From NCBI GenBank assembly GCA_032622095.1, contig CP136069.1, positions 72,129,319 through 72,193,318 of the forward strand: DNA of 64,000 bases, in the 5' to 3' direction. The position numbers and the translations under genes are program-made. Numbering within the stretch: position 1 is the first letter of the stretch; each line of letters starts with the position of its first letter. Of the stretch, positions 2,641 through 51,345 are shown in pieces. This stretch comes from Siphonodentalium dalli (lineage: Eukaryota; Mollusca; Scaphopoda; Gadilida; Siphonodentaliidae). The notes under the pieces were generated by a model. The model was not told the origin of the DNA, made no database searches, and worked only from the letters and a program-made list of their open reading frames with translations.

Positions 2641-2700
2641 CAAGTTCAGCTAAAAATAAACGGAACTACAAAATAAAATAATGAAAAGATTTGTGTTTAA

Positions 2701-3092
2701 CCCTTTACCCAACAAACCGGCCAAAAACGCCCAAATAAAGCTTCAACAGCCTAAAATATCTTCGGTCTGTCTCAATAGAACGATACAAATATGGATATCA
2801 TTGGAACCGGCTCCTTGACCACATTGTGATAGTTACAGTTATGCCCTGTGCCAATGCATTCTCTTATATATGCGAGTCGACCATAGGTCGCCTCGCATAT
2901 ATAAGAGAATGCATTGGCCTAAAAAAAATCTTTTTTTAACACTTTTTACCATTTTTTCTTACATTCTTTAACAATTTTATAATTTTTAATGTGTTAAGCC
3001 AATGCATTCTCTTATATATGTGAGGCGACCTATGGTCGACTCGCATATATAAGAGAATGCATTGGCACAGGGCCCTCCTGTTGGGTAAAGGG
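2701..3092. mobile_element. TTAA-flanked hairpin MITE, family A (piggyBac-like ends)
   Basis: The element is flanked by TTAA on both sides (2697-2700 and 3093-3096). Its termini are CCCTTTACCCAACA and the inverse TGTTGGGTAAAGGG. TTAA target sites and CCC-starting termini are hallmarks of the piggyBac superfamily. It holds two hairpins with 26-bp arms (CCAATGCATTCTCTTATATA...), the second being the reverse complement of the first, separated by a T-rich linker. Other copies are at 16091, 23935 and 37996, in the opposite orientation. No transposase is present. Confidence 0.88.
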
Positions 3093-6549: not shown

Positions 6550-7054
6550 CGTACACCAGCTTGGCGGTAAAAGTCAAGCGATTTTACGGCGCCAAACCTA
6601 AGGTTTATAAATAGATGTCGACACATATGTGTATATATACGGGAGAACGAGTAAACACTAATAGAAACTGTTTATGCGGCTAAACTGCGACCTCCAATAT
6701 GATTAATATGCATGATTTACACTCAAAATAAGCTCCCATTGTCACATTCGCGGCATAGCGTTTGTCGCTCAGTCGGTTATTAGAAGATTGGCTTAATTCG
6801 CTTTGCTACAACTTTTGTAGCCTACATGCTGGTCACAAGACTTCTAAACGTTTTGACCGTGAGTGTGTATGCGAATTCGTTGAAATGGTCACTTGATTCA
6901 GATAACTTATGTTGGCAATTTCAACACCGGTTACATATGTTATACGTGCGTATGGCTAAACCTGGCTAACGACCTGTGAACATGACGTCATAGTGTTCAT
7001 TATATTTTCGTGTTCACAAAGTCACACGGGTGACCCAACCGATTGGAGGCCATA
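6550..7054. other. No recognised feature
   Basis: Unique-looking DNA between the GGACGGACG repeat and the 21-bp satellite. No splice-supported open frame is visible. Confidence 0.5.
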
Positions 7055-9360
7055 TGTGTTACATATAGGCATCTCGATGTTTCACATTTACATCCCAGTC
7101 TTTTACACTGGCATCTCGGTGTTTTACATTAACATCCCAGTGCTTTACACTGGCATCTCGGTGTTTAACATTGCCCTCTCGGTGTTTTACACTGCATCTC
7201 GGTGTTTAGCATTGGCCTCTCTGTATTTTACACTGGCACCTCGGTGTTTTACATTGCCCTCTCGGTGTTTTACACTGGCATCTCGGTGTTTAACATTGGC
7301 CTCTCGGTGTTTAACACTGGCCTCTCGGTGTTTAACATTGGCCTGTCGCTGTCTTACATTGGCATCTCGGTGTTTAACATTGGCCTCTCGGTGTTTTGCA
7401 CTGACATCTCGGTGTTTTACATTGGCCTCTCTGTGTTTAACATTGTACTCTCGGTGTTTTACACTGGCATCTCGGTGTTTAACATTGGCATCTCGGTATT
7501 TTACACTGGCATCTCGGTGTTTAACATTGGCATCTCGGTATTTTACACTGGCATCTCGGTGTTTAACATTGGCCTCTCGGTATTTTACACTGGCATCTCG
7601 GTGTTTAACATTGGCCTCTCGGTGTTTTACACTGGCATCTCGGTGTTTAACATTGGCCTCTCGCTGTTTTACATTGGCATCTCGGTGTTTAACATCGGCC
7701 TGTCGCTGTTTTACATTGGCATCTCGGTGTTTAACATTGGCCAGTCGCTGTTTTACATTGGCATCTCGGTGTTTAACATTGGCATCTCGGTATTTTACAC
7801 TGGCATCTCGGTGTTTAACATTGGCCTCTCGGTATTTTACACTGGCATCTCGGTGTTTAACATTGGCCTCTCGGTGTTTTACACTGGCATCTCGGTGTTT
7901 AACATTGGCCTCTCGCTGTTTTACATTGGCATCTCGGTGTTTAACATTGGCCTGTCGCTGTTTTACATTGGCATCTCGGTGTTTAACATTGGCCTCTCGG
8001 TGTTTTGCACTGGGCTCTCGGTGTTTTATACTGACATCTCGGTGTTTTACATTGGCCTCTCTGTGTTTAACATTGTACTCTCGGTGTTTTACACTGGCAT
8101 CTCCGTGTTTAACATTGGCCTCTCAGTGTTTTACACTGGCATCTCCGTGTTTAACATTGGCCTCTCGGTATTTTACACTGGCATCTCGGTGTTTAACATT
8201 GGCCTCTCGGTGTTTTACACTGGCATCTCGGTGTTTAACATTGGCCTCTCGCTGTTTTACATTGGCATCTCGGTGTTTAACATTGGCCTGTCGCTGTTTT
8301 ACATTGGCATCTCGGTGTTTAACATTGGCCTCTCGGTGTTTTGCACTGGGCTCTCGGTGTTTTATACTGACATCTCGGTGTTTTACATTGGCCTCTCTGT
8401 GTTTAACATTGTACTCTCGGTGTTTTACACTGGCATCTCCGTGTTTAACATTGGCCTCTCGGTGTTTTATACTGACATATCGGTGTTTTACACTGGCATC
8501 TCGGTGTTTAACATTGGCCTCTCGGTATTTTACACTGGCCTCTCGGTGTTTAACATTGGCCTCTCGGTGTTTTACACTGGCCTCTCGGTGTTTAACATTG
8601 TCCTCTCTGTGTTTTACACTGGCATCTCGGTGTTTAACATTGGCCTGTCGCTGTTTTACATTGGCATCTCGGTGTTTAACATTGGCCTGTCGCTGTTTTA
8701 CATTGGCATCTCGGTGTTTAACATTGGCCTCTCGGTGTTTTATACTGACATCTCGGTGTTTTACATTGGCATCTCGGTGTTTAACATTGGCATCTCGGTG
8801 TTTAACATTGGCCTCTCGGTGTTTAACATTGGCCTCTCGGTGTTTTATACTGACATCTCGGTGTTTTATACTGACATCTCGGTGTTTTACATTGGCATCT
8901 CTGTGTTTTACATTGGCCTATATATGTTTATATTGGCCTCTCATTGTTTTCCATTGGCATATACAGTGTTTTGCATTGACCTCCCAGTGTTTTGCACTGG
9001 CATCTTGGCGTTTTACATTCTTGGCCTCTCGATGTTTCGCACTGACCTCTCAGTGTTTTCCATTGACCTCCCACTGTTTTTGCACTGGTATCTCGGTGTT
9101 TTACATTGGCCTTTCTGCATTTTCCATTGACCTCTCAGTGTTTTTACATTGGCCTCTATGTGTTTACAATGACCTCTCGATGTTTTACATTGACCTCCCA
9201 CTGTTTTGAAATGGCATCTCGGTGTTTTACGTTTGCCTCTACCGGTACTCGATTTTTTACATTGGCGTCTGTGTTCTACATTGACCTATATATGTGTGTG
9301 TGTGTGTTTACATTGGCCTCTCAGTATTTTCCATTGGCCTCTCAGTGTTCAGATATTCAG
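7055..9360. repeat. 21-bp satellite array, about 109 units
   Basis: The unit is CTCGGTGTTTAACATTGGC plus two bases (21 bp). It alternates between a 'TTTAACATTGG' and a 'TTTTACACTGG' form, giving a 42-bp dimer. A rarer block with TTTTGCACTG and ATTGTACTCT recurs at 7396, 8005 and 8341. The last two are exactly 336 bp (16 units) apart and the first two 609 bp (29 units) apart, so higher-order copying has occurred. Because 21 is divisible by 3 and the unit lacks stops in two plus-strand frames, frames of 738 and 642 codons overlap here (7-residue units like SRCLTLA and ISVFNIG). Two overlapping readings of the same DNA, periodic composition and no splice context argue that neither is a gene. Units degrade towards the right edge (after about 8900). 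Confidence 0.95.
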
Positions 9361-23934: not shown

Positions 23935-24310
23935 CCCTTTACCCAACAGAAGGGCCCTGTGCGAGTCGACCATACATGTAGGTCGCCTCGCATATATAAG
24001 AGAATGCATTGGCTTAACACATTAAAAATTATAAAATTGTTAAAGATTGTAAGAAAAAATGGTAAAAAGTGTTAAAAAAAGATTTTTTTTAGGCCAATGC
24101 ATTCTCTTATATATGCGAGGCGACCTATGGTCGACTCGCATATATAAGAGAATGCATTGGCACAGGGCATAACTGTAACTATCACAATGTGGTCAAGGAG
24201 CCGGTTCCAATGATATCCATATTTGTATGGTTCTATTGAGACAGACCGAAGATATTTTAGGCTGTTGAAGCTTTATTTGTCCGGTTTTGGCCGTTTTGTT
24301 GGGTAAAGGG
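23935..24310. mobile_element. TTAA MITE, family A, first hairpin half-deleted
   Basis: TTAA flanks (23931-23934 and 24311-24314) and intact CCCTTTACCCAACAG / GTTGGGTAAAGGG termini. The second hairpin (24092-24160) is complete. The first has lost its left arm (CTGTG joins directly to CGAGTCGACC) and its loop carries an extra ACATG, giving CCATACATGTAGG. Confidence 0.87.
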
Positions 24311-25642
24311 TTAACTAAAGTATTGTACACAATTCACGGTATGAGGATGGACATAACATGATTTGACAGTAAGCATAATGCTTACCATATTTTATCATAA
24401 ATATGATAAGGCGTTCCATGGCGTTTGAAAGAAACAGACTTTGAACTATAGCCTAATTGGCCTGCACTATTATCAAATGTCAAAGTGCAGGGCTAACACG
24501 ATTGCTATATATGTCGTTAATCTTGCTGTATTAAAGTCGAGCTATTCAAAAATGGAGCCATCAATATATTTAAAAATATAACCATTGAGCTCAAATGGCC
24601 GTGGAAGCAGTAGAAATAGCTCGTTGTTGCATAAGATGAACATTGATTTTAGAATTTAGCTGCAGTAAAAACTCAACGATAAGAGATACCGTGCAGATCT
24701 GTTGCATATATACCGTATATGGCTCCATTAAAAGTTTTATCAGTATATATAGGTTATTGGCGCCATCATAGTGCTTTGAATGTTATTTCAAAGAAATGAC
24801 ATAGAAATGAATATATATAGAGAAAGGTACGCTTCGTGAATGTATACATAATCGCATTTAATTTTTAAAAGGTGCGCTTTGTTTGGCAAGTGCTCTCTTT
24901 ATATGTTGTTCCTGACAACATCGGATCTCTATTCATAAGCATATTGATTTGAAAGACCAAGAAAATGTAGGGCATGATTATAGTGTCAACTTGATACGAT
25001 CGACAATTATAGTTTTCCAGTCATAAAGTGTCCATTGTGTATTAAGTCTCGACATATATTGGTGCAACGGTACCAACTTTATCACCGATCTTAAAGATGT
25101 TCTATCCCTCCGTGGCTCATGATGATTTAATCCCATAATTCACATGAACATAGAGAAGTACAAAGAAAGGAGTATTTACAAAAGAATATAGGGATATATA
25201 TACATTATATACATGTATCCGGTGCTGTGGGGACGTCCATCAACAAAAACAACAACAACAATTTTGTTTTTATTACACGATCCTACCATTATTCCATTCA
25301 ATAAACCCATTCTATAAATTGTGATATTAAACGTTCGTGCCAGGTGACCTTTGACTTCCGGTTTACCGTCTTTTAACATTCCGTACGCTACGTCTCAAAA
25401 ATACTATGACTTCCAATATTTTTCCAACAAACTATCATGACTGAAGAATTTGAAAAGTTATGTTATTAAATATACGCCATTAAAAGCGCCAAATAGTCTT
25501 TATTTATCTGGGACTATTTCTTTACGCGGGCAAACAACGAATAGTTAAGTGAAACGTCATCGCATGTCTTATACAAGCCGATGTTAGTTTTCTCGTTCCA
25601 TTTGTTGATTTAAGTATGTTTTGTCGATGTTTTGGATCATGT
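24311..25642. other. No gene or repeat recognised
   Basis: 1.3 kb of unique-looking AT-rich DNA. A CAACAAAAACAACAACAACA patch lies near 25240. The short frames show no domain or splice context. Confidence 0.55.
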
Positions 25643-37760: not shown

Positions 37761-37995
37761 ATTTATATAACTTACCTGACCCCAAGTCCCTGTATGCCCA
37801 CATGATAAGTGGTCTTGAGTGGTTGAAAGGCGTTCATATGTGTATGAGTCTTTGGTTTAATGATAATTGGAGTTTCAAGGTATCTTGATTCTTGAATCTT
37901 ACTGCATGCAAATTTTAGAATTGGCACAGGTGCATGATCGTTTTGTTAGTAAAGTGTACAGTAACGTAAGAAGTGAGCAACGGCTTCTGCATTAA

Positions 37996-38376
37996 CCCTT
38001 TACCCAACAGAAGGGCCCTGTGCCAATGCATTCTCTTATATATGCGAGTCGACCATAGGTCGCCTCGCATATATAAGAGAATGCATTGGCTTAACACATT
38101 AAAAATTATAAAATTGTTAAAGAATGTAAGAAAAAATTGTAAAAAAAGAATTTTTTTAGGCCAATGCATTCTCTTATATATGCGAGGCGACCTATGGTCG
38201 ACTCGCATATATAAGAGAATGCATTGGCACAGGGCATAACTGTAACCATCACAATGTGGTCAAGGAGCCGGTTCCAATGATATCCATATTTGTATGGTTC
38301 TATTGAGACAGACCGAAGATATTTTAGGCTGTTGAACTTTATTTGGCCGGTTTTGGCCGGTTTGTTGGGTAAAGGG
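37996..38376. mobile_element. TTAA MITE, family A, intact copy
   Basis: TTAA flanks (37992-37995 and 38377-38380), CCCTTTACCCAACAG start and GTTGGGTAAAGGG end. Both hairpins (38026-38093 and 38160-38228) are complete. The tail contains ATCACAATGTGGTCAAGGAG and ATATCCATATTTGTATGG. This is the best reference copy in the window. Confidence 0.92.
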
Positions 38377-47930: not shown

Positions 47931-48535
47931 GCTTATCTGTGGTGAGTTGTCAAGGCGTGCACCGAAACACGCCGTAGACGTTGTACGGTGTCCGATACAA
48001 ACACTTTCAACACAACAGCGCCCTCGTCAAAGAAAATCGTTGGGCGGGTTTGCCAATTTGCCGTCTGCGCGCTTCGCTCAACACTGATCAACAGTCTATC
48101 CGTTCATTGATGTCAATTCGTTGTAGAAGCCGTGGGTATATTGTGGCTTTAAAAGTTATCTGCTTGTTGATGTCTACTCGTTGGAAAACTTTCTAGAACT
48201 CGTGGGTATGTTGGGCGCGTTTTGACCGTAAGCCGGTTCACCAGACCAATCGATCACCGGTTAATTCCTTGTGACCTGTAGGTCCGTGAACCTCAATTAT
48301 TTAGCAACGGAATTATTCTGGTCCGTGACATCCGCTTGAGATTTATCCACGTCCGACGCGTGTCTATATCCCGGCGTATATAATTTCCTATAAAATAATA
48401 CACGTCCCGCTGTTGCAATCCATTACATTGGAAAACGTAATATATAATGCATAATTATGCGTCTGGACATATAATCCGGATAATACTGATAATGAGGGGG
48501 GACGTGGTCATGTATACTTTTGGTAGATCATGTCA
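47931..48535. other. No gene assigned; relatively CpG-rich
   Basis: CpG-containing unique-looking DNA (for example GTCCGTGACATCCGC, CACGTCCGACGCG). Short frames at 47884-48196 are unsupported. It could be 3' untranslated or promoter sequence. Confidence 0.35.
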
Positions 48536-48751
48536 CGAATCTCTGCTCTGGCTTCACCCGTAGAGATCACACTCCACTAGATCGTGCTATGAATCTATAC
48601 TCTGGCTAACGCCCGTATAGAGTTCATATTCCACCAGTTAAAGACCGTGTAACTTTTTGAAGTTTTGACAGGGAACCTTATAAAGTCGAAAAATTAAAGC
48701 GAGGAATATATACTTCTATGGGGCGCCGTTCCTCTATTTATCCCCTATTTG

Positions 48752-49168
48752 CAGATATCTCCTCGTGGCTAAGAGATATCTCCTCGTGAATTAAGAGATA
48801 TCTCCTAGCGATTTAGAGATATCTCCTCGCGAATTAAGAGATATCTGCTAGCAATTTAGAGATATCTCTTAATCGACATGATCGAGGAGATATCTCCTCG
48901 CGAATTAAGAGATATCTCTAAATCACTAAGAGATATCTCCTCGCGAATTAAGAGATATCTCCAATTCATTAGCAGATATCTCTTAATTCGCGAGGAGATA
49001 TCTCTTAGTGGCATGATTTAGAGATATCTATCAATTCGCGAGGAGATATCTCTTAGTGATTTAGAGATATCTCTTAATTCGCGAGGAGATATCTCTTAGC
49101 CACGAGGAGATATCTCTTAGTACTGCTGAATTAAGAGATATCTCCTCGGCCGCTAAGAGATATCTCCA
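48752..49168. repeat. Left subterminal palindrome array, 19 copies of GAGATATCTC
   Basis: I count 19 decamers, nearly all GAGATATCTC, with a few one-base variants (GAGATATCTG, CAGATATCTC, GAGATATCTA). They are separated by words of 11 or 12 bp (CTCGCGAATTAA, TAAATCACTAA, TTAGTGATTTA, CTCGTGGCTAA, CTCGGCCGCTAA) with three longer ones of 16-18 bp, so the usual period is 21-22 bp. Read from the inside outwards, the inner ten or so words repeat, in order and inverted, at the start of the right array. Confidence 0.93.
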
Positions 49169-49199
49169 ATTCGACAGTGTTGACTGGAACAGGCTTAAA

Positions 49200-49490
49200 A
49201 TGAAGGATCCCTCAATAGTACTCAATGATGCTATGTATAGAACAGCGAGAGCACGTGGCGTTGTTTATAAACAGAGGGTCGGACATTCTCCGGGTATTAC
49301 AATACGTTGCCCTACCTTGTGCAATGTAAACATGTCATCGAATAAAACAGTGATGGTGGGTCTTATAATAAAAAGGGGCCACCGCAATTGTTGGTATGGC
49401 TTATGCAACAATGGCAGTAAGAAATGTGGAGAAAATCACTTGGAAAATGTAACTTTGACGCCCTTTCCTAACCTAAAATCAAACAGATAA
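49200..49490 (+). CDS. Unrecognised 96-codon frame inside the transposon
   Basis: This lies just inside the left palindrome array. It is the only plus-strand frame of any size in the internal region. It is basic, with a Cys-rich C-terminal half (RCPTLC, then NCWYGLCNNGSKKCGENH) loosely reminiscent of a zinc-binding knuckle, but the spacing matches no family I know. No leader. It may be a remnant of a captured or transposase gene, or chance. AAAATG context, stop at 49488-49490. Confidence 0.25.
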   Translation: MKDPSIVLNDAMYRTARARGVVYKQRVGHSPGITIRCPTLCNVNMSSNKTVMVGLIIKRGHRNCWYGLCNNGSKKCGENHLENVTLTPFPNLKSNR

Positions 49491-50394
49491 AATATGTATT
49501 TATGGATTAATTAGTTGTTGCTGAAACGAGAAATTAACTGTTGATACCGATAAAATTGGACATATATATGCAGCAAGTATTTTGTGCGTGTCCTTAGCCC
49601 CACTAAGGAGTTCCCGGACCCAATTCCTGTCACATTATGACATATTTCAGACAGAACGAAAATGACTGTCAAATTATGTGTTATCAAATCGAAAATTACG
49701 ACTGGATTCACAAAATTCGAACAGTGTTAATATAGTGTCAAGTGATATAGTACTATAGATACAATGTATAGGTGCATGCAAAAAACACGAGAACATGTAT
49801 ACAGGCCCTGTAGGGAACGTGATGCCACAGAAACTCTTATGTCGCCAGATGTCTCTTGGTTATTTTAGCTATGTCAATTACGTGGAGAATAATTCAGGGA
49901 CCAAAGATGCCGTCGATGCACTACTGATTTGTGAACAATAAACATGGATTTTGTGAACTGAGAACTGGTGTTGATGGCAAAGCTGTAAGGCAACATTGCC
50001 ATAAATATAATGCTTTCGTTATATAATCATGGATCTAGTGAAAAAATTATTTGACAATATGATATAATTGATTTGGATCATCAAACACCTGCATGTATAT
50101 GGGAAGCCAAATTGACCGTGGAGCCCAACGATGATACGAACACAGCATCCGCCTTATATAGACGGACTAATGATATTCTCCCCAAATCCAAGCGGTAAAT
50201 AAAATATATACTCTGCTACAGTCCAAATCATTATACTCTGTCCATTTAATAGGTTCTGTTGCACATGCACCAATATATCGTGTGCTCGCCCTTCTGCCAT
50301 AACGAAATTAACACATACAATATTCACAATGGCTGGCAAAAAAAAAAACCACTTGCTGGGAGGAGAAATTATTAATGTTCTCTGACCCAAAACT
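49491..50394. other. Transposon internal region, no recognised gene
   Basis: AT-rich sequence without palindromes. Minus frames of 66 and 78 codons (49511-49711 and 50154-50390) have no motif. Confidence 0.5.
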
Positions 50395-50904
50395 GGCTAA
50401 GAGATATCTCTTAGCGGCCGAGGAGATATCTCTTAATTCAGTAGTACTAAGAGATATCTCCTCGTGGCTAAGAGATATCTCCTCGCGAATTAAGAGATAT
50501 CTCTAAATCACTAAGAGATATCTCCTCGCGAATTAAGAGATATCTCTAAATCATGCCACTAAGAGATATCTCCTCGTGAATTAAGAGATATCTGCTAATG
50601 AATTGGAGATATCTCTTAATTCGCGAGGAGATATCTCTTAGTCATTTGGAGATATCTCTTAGAGGCCGAGGAGATATCTCTTAATTCAGCAGTACTAAGA
50701 GATATCTCCTCGTGGCTAAGAGATATCTCCTCGTGAATTAAGAGATATCTGCTAGTGATTTAGAGATATCTCTTAATTCGCGAGGAGATATCTCTTAGTC
50801 ATTTGGAGATATCTCCTTGGCAATTGGAGATATCTCTTAATGAATTGGAGATATCTCTTAATGAATTGGAGATATCTCCAAATGAATTGGAGATATCTCT
50901 AAAT
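50395..50904. repeat. Right subterminal palindrome array, 23 copies of GAGATATCTC
   Basis: I count 23 decamers with the same vocabulary of 11-12-bp words. Its inner part (50395-50600) is the inverse of 48960-49168 word for word, with point differences. A similar block starting AGAGGCCGAG / TTAATTCAGCAGTACTAA recurs at 50660-50800, so part of the array was duplicated. The outermost words are TTAATGAATTG-type and are absent from the left outer end. Confidence 0.93.
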
Positions 50905-51140
50905 AGGGGATAAATAGAGGAAGGGCGCCCCATATACTTCTTAGTTATTACCTGTTCCTTAATAATGTACTTCGCTGCAGGTGAAGGTCCCAACTCGAAA
51001 GTTCACGATTTAAGTGATTTTGTGAGCGATTTTGCTTTGCGTCGCTTACAATTATGGAATTTCTCCTGGGTAATTAAATCAATGTTTATTGCGATATCGG
51101 CTCATAAAAGTCACAGAAAATCACGCAATTTCGAGTTGGG

Positions 51141-51212
51141 TCCTTCACCTATACAATGACGTACTCCTTCACCTATACAATGACGTACTCCTTCACCTAT
51201 ACAATGACGTAC
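51141..51212. repeat. 24-bp tandem triplication
   Basis: TCCTTCACCTATACAATGAC plus GTAC is present three times in a row inside the right arm of the family G copy. In the other copies this point is a single CACCTTCAGTGAAGTAC-type sequence. Confidence 0.95.
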
Positions 51213-51345
51213 ATTTCTAAGGTACAGATAATAACTAAGAAATATATTCCCCGTGTTACTTTTTCTACTTTATAAGGTTCCCTGTCAAAACTGGTGGAAT
51301 ATGATCTCTACGGGCGTTAGCCAGAGTAGATTCATGGCATGATCC

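What the first reader, a model, noticed from the sequence alone, without database searches (positions are those of the whole stretch)
48718..50933. Transposon armed with 42 GAGATATCTC palindromes at 21-22-bp spacing
Two subterminal arrays (19 left, 23 right by eye) carry a perfect 10-bp palindrome separated almost always by 11 or 12 bp, i.e. about two helical turns, so the sites would lie on one face of the DNA. Each decamer contains GATA on both strands. Subterminal transposase-binding repeats are known in hAT and Mutator-like elements, but I know of no described case with this density, palindromic perfection and helical phasing. It may be a transposase platform, a host-factor (GATA-type) platform or a recombination substrate. 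The count and spacing are seen; the function is inference.
Basis: partly seen in the sequence, partly recalled or inferred. Interest (0 to 1): 0.85.

Follow-up and report, generated by a model that had tools for sequence, protein, structure and literature searches.

The report
Jumping gene with arrayed palindromic sites
This is a small, recently active jumping gene that moves with borrowed enzymes and whose two ends carry dozens of copies of one short palindrome at near-regular spacing, probably a docking platform for the protein that moves it.

Summary
The element (48717-50934, 6-bp target duplication TACTTC) has two subterminal arrays with 42 decamers, 36 perfect and 6 with one mismatch. It is one of a family in a 2.23-Gb eukaryotic genome: 385 terminus hits, control 0. 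All 20 paired copies tabulated carry decamers, and 785 of 1,041 neighbouring pairs in held sequence are 21-22 bp apart. The 6-bp duplication (exact in 23 of 30 pairs) and TATGG..CCATA ends fit the IS3EU superfamily as published, not hAT or Mutator. No autonomous member was found. Substitutions shared by several copies avoid decamers in the right arm (0 over 230 sites against 16 over 239, p 3e-5), not significantly in the left; private ones do not differ significantly. Other arrays use the same decamer at exactly 20 bp (866 pairs, control 0). Best reading: a non-autonomous IS3EU-like element whose palindromes dock a dimeric, element-encoded protein. Helical phasing holds within blocks; 26- and 28-bp steps break it.

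The parts
48711..48716 (.). Left copy of the 6-bp target-site duplication TACTTC
   Evidence: 6-bp duplications exact in 23 of 30 paired copies
48717..48750 (+). Left terminal inverted repeat, 34 bp, begins TATGGGGCGCC
   Evidence: pattern with 385 genome hits, reversed control 0
48752..49166 (+). Left subterminal array, 19 decamers (15 perfect, 4 with one mismatch)
49167..50400 (+). Interior with no open frame of 150 aa or more; long matches in other copies are mostly 90-100% alike
50139..50209 (+). Remnant of a coding exon end and splice-donor-like GTAAAT (reads ..TASALYRR..IFSPNPS in related copies)
   Evidence: 89% over 73 nt to L041 5481-5553; same frame recognisable in parts of L041, L054, L055, L056
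50401..50899 (+). Right subterminal array, 23 decamers (21 perfect, 2 with one mismatch); 414 nt of it is 88% complementary to the left array
50901..50934 (-). Right terminal inverted repeat, 34 bp, ends GGCGCCCCATA
50935..50940 (.). Right copy of the target-site duplication TACTTC

Best explanation
A non-autonomous, recently mobile DNA transposon of the IS3EU/GingerRoot kind. It is moved in trans by a DDE transposase that cuts next to TA..TA ends with a 6-bp stagger. [quoted passage not shown] Bound at steps of about two helical turns, its dimers would coat each arm in blocks, raise the local concentration of transposase and help pair the two ends; the same sites may also titrate or repress it. 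Shown: element, ends, 6-bp duplications, array and spacing across the copies examined, recent movement, right-arm avoidance of decamer changes. Inferred: superfamily membership (by ends and duplication only), the trans-acting enzyme, identity of the binder, synapsis role.
For: Array in all 20 paired copies tabulated, 7-47 decamers with at most one mismatch. 785 of 1,041 neighbouring pairs 21-22 bp apart. Genome-wide 3,051 perfect pairs with an 11-12-bp spacer, control 0. 6-bp duplications exact in 23 of 30 pairs. Ends TATGG..CCATA, repeats of 34 bp: published IS3EU have 6-bp duplications and TA..TA ends, fungal ones TAYGG..CCRTA with repeats over 30 bp (passages). The genome holds many rva_4 integrase-core domains (126 matches); that this is the IS3EU-type domain is recalled, not shown by a call. 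Shared substitutions: right arm 0 decamer against 16 spacer variants, p 3e-5; both arms 7 against 27, p 7.6e-4; private ones 89 against 75, p 0.31. A copy on C1 has both arms identical in the compared columns (0 of 412, 0 of 481), interior above 99% and a different duplication (TGTTAG): recent movement. Same decamer reused at 20-bp spacing. Precedent: palindromes in piggyBac ends bound by the C-terminal domains of both monomers of a dimer (passages).
Against: No autonomous element and no transposase between matching ends was found. Of 109 rva_4 places compared with 151 listed ends, only two neighbourhoods lay within 40 kb: one flanks a 745-bp copy that has its own ends, the other (C8:58991061) is 27 kb off and was not read. 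One rva_4 region read (L063, 6.2 kb) shows no decamer and no matched pair of such ends; its own ends may lie outside. The left arm alone shows no significant avoidance (7 over 190 against 11 over 185 sites, p 0.35). Block-like spacer differences show that arrays are also reshuffled, which by itself keeps decamers in register. 26- and 28-bp steps break the phase. No binding data exist.
Confidence: 0.6

Rival explanations
1. Array by tandem and inverted duplication alone: the decamers are what remains of a satellite-like repeat that spread by slippage, unequal exchange and template switching inside the inverted repeats, with no binding role (as with the tandem repeats inside some Galileo ends).
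For: Each arm is internally inverted and repetitive; blocks of spacers are swapped between subfamilies; perfect decamers recur every 29 bp at C1:7414188-7414516 (positions only).
Against: Spacers differ widely while the 8-bp core is invariant in 42 of 42 units (units were chosen with at most one mismatch). Shared variants avoid decamers in the right arm, private ones do not. The same decamer is held at a second spacing of 20 bp.
Confidence: 0.22
2. Host-factor platform: the decamer is a site for a host transcription factor or architectural protein that drives or insulates the element, for example a GATA-type or homeodomain dimer.
For: Perfect palindrome suits a host dimer; a shared site in arrays of two spacings could mean a host reader.
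Against: AGATAT is not a standard WGATAR site (recalled). The arrays lie just inside the ends in the copies tabulated, which suits an end-binding protein better than a promoter.
Confidence: 0.12
3. Derivative of a Polinton/Maverick, which also makes 6-bp target duplications: the 32.7-kb copy with the same ends carries a frame that weakly resembles the adenovirus protease and others that I took for Polinton genes by eye.
For: L041/L042 share ends, array pieces and the 6-bp duplication ACAGGG with the family; one L042 frame matches Peptidase_C5 at E 0.0051, 17 bits, below the curated cut-off of 21.3; a capsid-like frame has no Pfam match.
Against: The insert has its own inverted repeats (AGTAGTATTGG..) and its own 6-bp duplication CATGTA inside the element: it came later.
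Confidence: 0.02
4. A hAT element with 6-bp duplications (hAT6 is reported) rather than IS3EU.
For: hAT6 with 6-bp duplications is cited in PMC12730594 (passages), and hAT elements can have subterminal repeats (passages).
Against: Ends TATGGGG..CCCCATA fit the published IS3EU ends and not the usual hAT ends (hAT consensus recalled, not tested).
Confidence: 0.12

Closest known systems
IS3EU/GingerRoot DNA transposons (PMC10045372, PMC12730594; passages seen)
   Same: 6-bp target duplications, TA..TA ends, TAYGG..CCRTA, inverted repeats over 30 bp
   Different: No dense palindromic subterminal array is mentioned in the passages I saw; transposase not found here
CACTA elements such as soybean Tgmt* (PMC2613891; passages seen)
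   Same: Dense subterminal repeats (4 left, 24 right in Tgmt*) able to form palindromes, thought to be read by a TNPA-like protein
   Different: 3-bp duplication, CACTA ends, asymmetric arrays, longer variable motif
piggyBac and piggyBat (PMC11707139; passages seen)
   Same: Palindromes inside the ends bound by C-terminal domains of both monomers of a transposase dimer; extra subterminal sites can inhibit
   Different: A 19-bp palindrome in each piggyBac end, or an imperfect one three times in the piggyBat left end, not about 20 per arm; TTAA targets (recalled)
Hermes, a hAT element (PMC10368747; passages seen)
   Same: Short subterminal repeats bound by several DNA-binding domains of a transposase multimer
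   Different: Short non-identical repeats, bound at the left end only; 8-bp duplications (recalled for Hermes)
Galileo, a P-superfamily element (PMC4168063; passages seen)
   Same: Long inverted arms, internal tandem repeats in some copies, many non-autonomous copies
   Different: 7-8-bp duplications; tandem repeats in only some copies; no invariant short palindrome mentioned in the passages

Membership tests
IS3EU/GingerRoot | 6-bp target-site duplication | tested here: met
   Exact in 23 of 30 paired copies; 1 more has one mismatch; the other 6 are two worn short copies and two duplicated loci with a changed end
IS3EU/GingerRoot | TA..TA ends (TAYGG..CCRTA in the fungal families) | tested here: met
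   TATGGGG..CCCCATA; 21 of 30 pairs have TATGGG at both ends, 9 have a change at one or both; published features
IS3EU/GingerRoot | Terminal inverted repeats over 30 bp (fungal families) | tested here: met
   34 bp with one differing base in the window element
IS3EU/GingerRoot | IS3EU-type DDE transposase encoded by an autonomous member with these ends | tested here: inconclusive
   Not found among 109 rva_4 places (of 126 matches listed) and 151 listed ends; the 385 end hits were not all listed and 150 of 241 rva_4 candidates were scored
hAT | 8-bp target duplication (7, 6 and 5 bp in special lineages) | tested here: not met
   6 bp; hAT6 remains possible
Mutator-like | About 9-bp target duplication (recalled) | tested here: not met
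   6 bp
Polinton/Maverick | AG..CT ends (recalled), own coding set between the family's ends | tested here: not met
   Ends are TA..TA; the Polinton-like insert in the 32.7-kb copy has its own ends and duplication
Dada | No terminal inverted repeats, insertion in small-RNA genes | tested here: not met
   34-bp inverted repeats; no tRNA gene in the window and no Rfam match at the gathering threshold at 48600-51100; published features

The most novel reading that the evidence does not exclude
One dimeric reader of GAGATATCTC serves at least two element families in this genome that have re-evolved arrays of different pitch (20 bp and 21-22 bp), each close to two helical turns; the arrays are then a phased multivalent scaffold on which a transposase filament assembles block by block. 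No title or passage that I saw describes such an architecture for IS3EU (listings and passages only).
Probability: 0.25. Interest if true: 0.72.

Novelty: new variant of a known kind. Interest (0 to 1): 0.5.

Why it matters
Subterminal repeats are common, but I know of few cases with a single perfect palindrome at this number and pitch through a whole family, and here it is in what looks like IS3EU, a superfamily whose mechanism is little studied (recalled). If the reader protein were found, this would be a natural test of whether site number, pitch and helical phase control synapsis or repress transposition. It also gives a genomic example in which changes that spread avoid the sites in one arm while inserted copies decay evenly.

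Tried and rejected
Polinton parentage of the 32.7-kb copy: rejected when the nested ends and duplication were seen. An 8-bp duplication read by eye at first (ATACTTCT): rejected, the family fits 6 bp with one more T/A in the repeat. Autonomous parent at C1:96836747-96857737: rejected, a 745-bp copy with its own ends lies between the transposase pieces. Coding region shared by L054 and L058 (78% over 1.5 kb): no frame over 94 aa and none convincing. Exon MAGVSEM..: no Pfam family; 3 genome matches, all inside copies or the 32.7-kb relative. Array in viral contigs: 0. Literature for the decamer: 28 papers hold the letters, of which 20 were listed; no listed title concerns such arrays in a DNA transposon. 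The first constraint measure (decamers 5-7%, spacers 12-16% in distant copies) overstated the effect because spacers had been swapped in blocks; with clear register in 15 chosen arms it was 42 of 2,080 against 133 of 2,481, and the filtered test replaces it. The host species was not identified; one guess (a lettuce) was looked up in the taxonomy and dropped. Spacers of 1-9 bp as a control were asked for but did not complete.

Full report
WHAT IS THERE. The element spans 48717-50934 (2,218 bp). It starts TATGGGGCGCC and ends GGCGCCCCATA, with 34-bp inverted repeats that differ at one base, and it is flanked by TACTTC on both sides. Thirty-six perfect GAGATATCTC lie in the window, all of them in this element, against a shuffle mean of 0.07. 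With one mismatch allowed there are 42 in the element, 19 left and 23 right, and 2 elsewhere in the window. Column counts over the 42 units show AGATATCT in 42 of 42, the outer G in 40 and the outer C in 38, while the commonest base in single spacer columns has 31-81% (columns at fixed offsets). Units were chosen with at most one mismatch, but no step in the arrays is long enough to hide a whole missed unit with normal spacers: the longest is 28 bp. The arms are 88% complementary over 414 nt, and each arm is itself internally inverted.

SPACING AND PHASE. Spacers here are 11 bp (18), 12 bp (16), 16 bp (2) and 18 bp (4). At 10.5 bp per turn the phase coherence is 0.386 and 0.489, above random spacings (p 0.028 and 0.001), but the angles show blocks of 2-10 sites, each drifting slowly and turned by 120 degrees at each 28-bp step and by about 170 degrees at each 26-bp step. 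So the claim that all sites lie on one face is too strong. Over all distinct neighbouring pairs in the held sequence, 785 of 1,041 are 21-22 bp apart, 155 are 26-28 bp and 33 are 41-45 bp.

THE FAMILY. The window is part of chromosome-scale contig C9 of a 2.23-Gb genome in 9 contigs. The terminus pattern with up to 3 mismatches has 385 hits and 0 in the reversed control; about 100 of these were listed. With two further patterns I could place 151 ends. They form 49 plus/minus neighbours, of 231 to 32,675 bp, 28 of them between 1,889 and 2,742 bp. Every one of the 20 paired copies tabulated carries decamers, from 7 (a worn 233-bp copy) to 47; one of the 20 rows (L039) ends at an inner terminus, and two (L056, L057) are one insertion twice. 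Target duplications of 6 bp are exact in 23 of 30 pairs. The seven misses are one pair with a single mismatch, two worn short copies, two copies from one duplicated locus and two from another, both loci with a changed far end. For the 11.4-kb copy the best of several partners was taken, and two of the 23 are the same insertion in an inverted duplication (C6), so the 23 are not all independent. The copy at C1:181068617-181070812 has both arms identical to the window element in the columns compared (0 of 412 and 0 of 481, CpG columns left out), a nearly identical interior (99.5-99.6% over 1,012 and 1,082 nt) and another duplication, TGTTAG: the family moved recently.

EMPTY SITE. Joining the flanks with one TACTTC kept gives an inverted repeat that runs across the junction (84% over 105 nt) with another stretch beside it (88% over 60 nt). 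The element therefore jumped into an older palindromic repeat.

WHAT MOVED IT. 6-bp duplications and TA..TA ends are what one paper gives for IS3EU, and TAYGG..CCRTA with repeats over 30 bp what another gives for fungal IS3EU (PMC10045372 and PMC12730594, passages). hAT6 also has 6-bp duplications and stays a rival. The genome contains integrase-core domains of the rva_4 family: 126 matches, with 150 of 241 candidates scored. That rva_4 is the IS3EU-type domain is recalled; no call shows it. I compared 109 of the rva_4 places (neighbouring pieces left out) with the 151 ends. Two neighbourhoods lie within 40 kb: C1:96836747-96857737, which flanks a 745-bp copy that has its own ends and duplication, and C8:58991061, 27 kb from a cluster of copies, which was not read. 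One rva_4 region that I read (L063, 6.2 kb) shows no decamer and no matched pair of such ends, though its own ends may lie outside. After the left array, related copies hold an exon (MAGVSEM..; L041, with recognisable parts in L054, L055 and L056), and the window element keeps its last part and the donor-like GTAAAT; no Pfam family matches it. An autonomous copy must have existed recently (inference) but was not found.

THE 32.7-KB COPY. C4:131104837-131137513 has the family's ends and the duplication ACAGGG. Its left array is broken by inserts, and a Polinton-like element with its own inverted repeat and the duplication CATGTA sits in its interior. The name rests on AG..CT ends (recalled), the 6-bp duplication and one frame with a sub-threshold match to the adenovirus protease. 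This refutes the idea, which I held for a while, that the window element is a Polinton derivative.

ARE THE DECAMERS KEPT BY SELECTION? Arms were compared with the window arms, CpG sites left out and only units in clear register used (64 distinct arms, of which 27 left and 22 right passed the score limit; Fisher tests set numbers of variants against numbers of sites). Variants seen in one copy only: left 50 over 190 decamer sites against 31 over 185 spacer sites (p 0.09), right 39 over 230 against 44 over 239 (p 0.81). Variants shared by three or more copies: left 7 against 11 (p 0.35), right 0 against 16 (p 3e-5); both arms together 7 over 420 against 27 over 424 (p 7.6e-4), private 89 against 75 (p 0.31). 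Dead copies thus decay about evenly, while changes that spread through source elements avoid decamers, clearly in the right arm and not significantly in the left. The filter (at most 3 differences per spacer) works against this result. The window arm is the reference, not an ancestor, and shared variants are not all independent events.

OTHER ARRAYS. Genome-wide there are 3,051 perfect pairs with an 11-12-bp spacer (control 0), 866 with exactly 10 bp (control 0) and 5,372 with 13-42 bp, which includes skipped units (control 265). The 20-bp arrays that were listed (14 loci, all on C1) do not coincide with listed family ends, and some form two clusters 1.3-2.1 kb apart, as expected of the two arms of one element (for example C1:154105894-154106025 and 154108011-154108162). 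Their letters could not be read. They suggest sister families with the same decamer and another pitch, again near two turns. The count for spacers of 1-9 bp, a useful control, did not complete.

MECHANISM. A palindromic 10-mer suits a dimer. In piggyBac a palindrome in the end is bound by the C-terminal domains of both monomers (PMC11707139, passages), and CACTA elements have dense subterminal repeats thought to be read by a TNPA-like protein (PMC2613891, passages). I take the arrays as docking sites for such an element-encoded protein. Whether they promote synapsis or restrain it cannot be told; the piggyBat work shows that subterminal sites can inhibit. Novelty is limited to what I searched: (listings) brought no title describing such arrays in IS3EU, and Repbase itself was not searched.

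Noticed in passing
G000 C1:7965466-7965555, C1:112027247-112027785, C1:154105894-154108162 and others (positions only): Arrays of the same decamer at exactly 20-bp spacing, 866 pairs genome-wide with control 0, away from the listed family ends: probable sister families.
   Followed up: partly
G000 C1:7414188-7414516 (positions only): Perfect decamers recurring every 29 bp about a dozen times, a satellite-like array.
   Followed up: no
L041 about 5566 to L042 about 4241: Polinton-like element with its own inverted repeats and 6-bp duplication CATGTA nested in a copy of this family; L042 6630-9129 reads N.
   Followed up: partly
window 48526-48716 and 50941-51344: The flanks form an inverted repeat across the empty site: the element sits in an older palindromic repeat.
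   Followed up: partly
window 51141-51212: Three perfect tandem copies of a 24-bp unit just outside the element.
   Followed up: no
window 6960-9209: Long 21-bp tandem array (83 copies in register) that stays open in several frames, including a 749-aa frame.
   Followed up: no
window 2697-3032, 23979-24314, 37985-38376: A dispersed repeat present in both orientations, up to 98% alike.
   Followed up: no
G000 C6:109614939-109618412 and C6:110849148-110852605: The same insertion of this family (duplications GTAATG/CATTAC) in an inverted duplication about 1.2 Mb apart.
   Followed up: no
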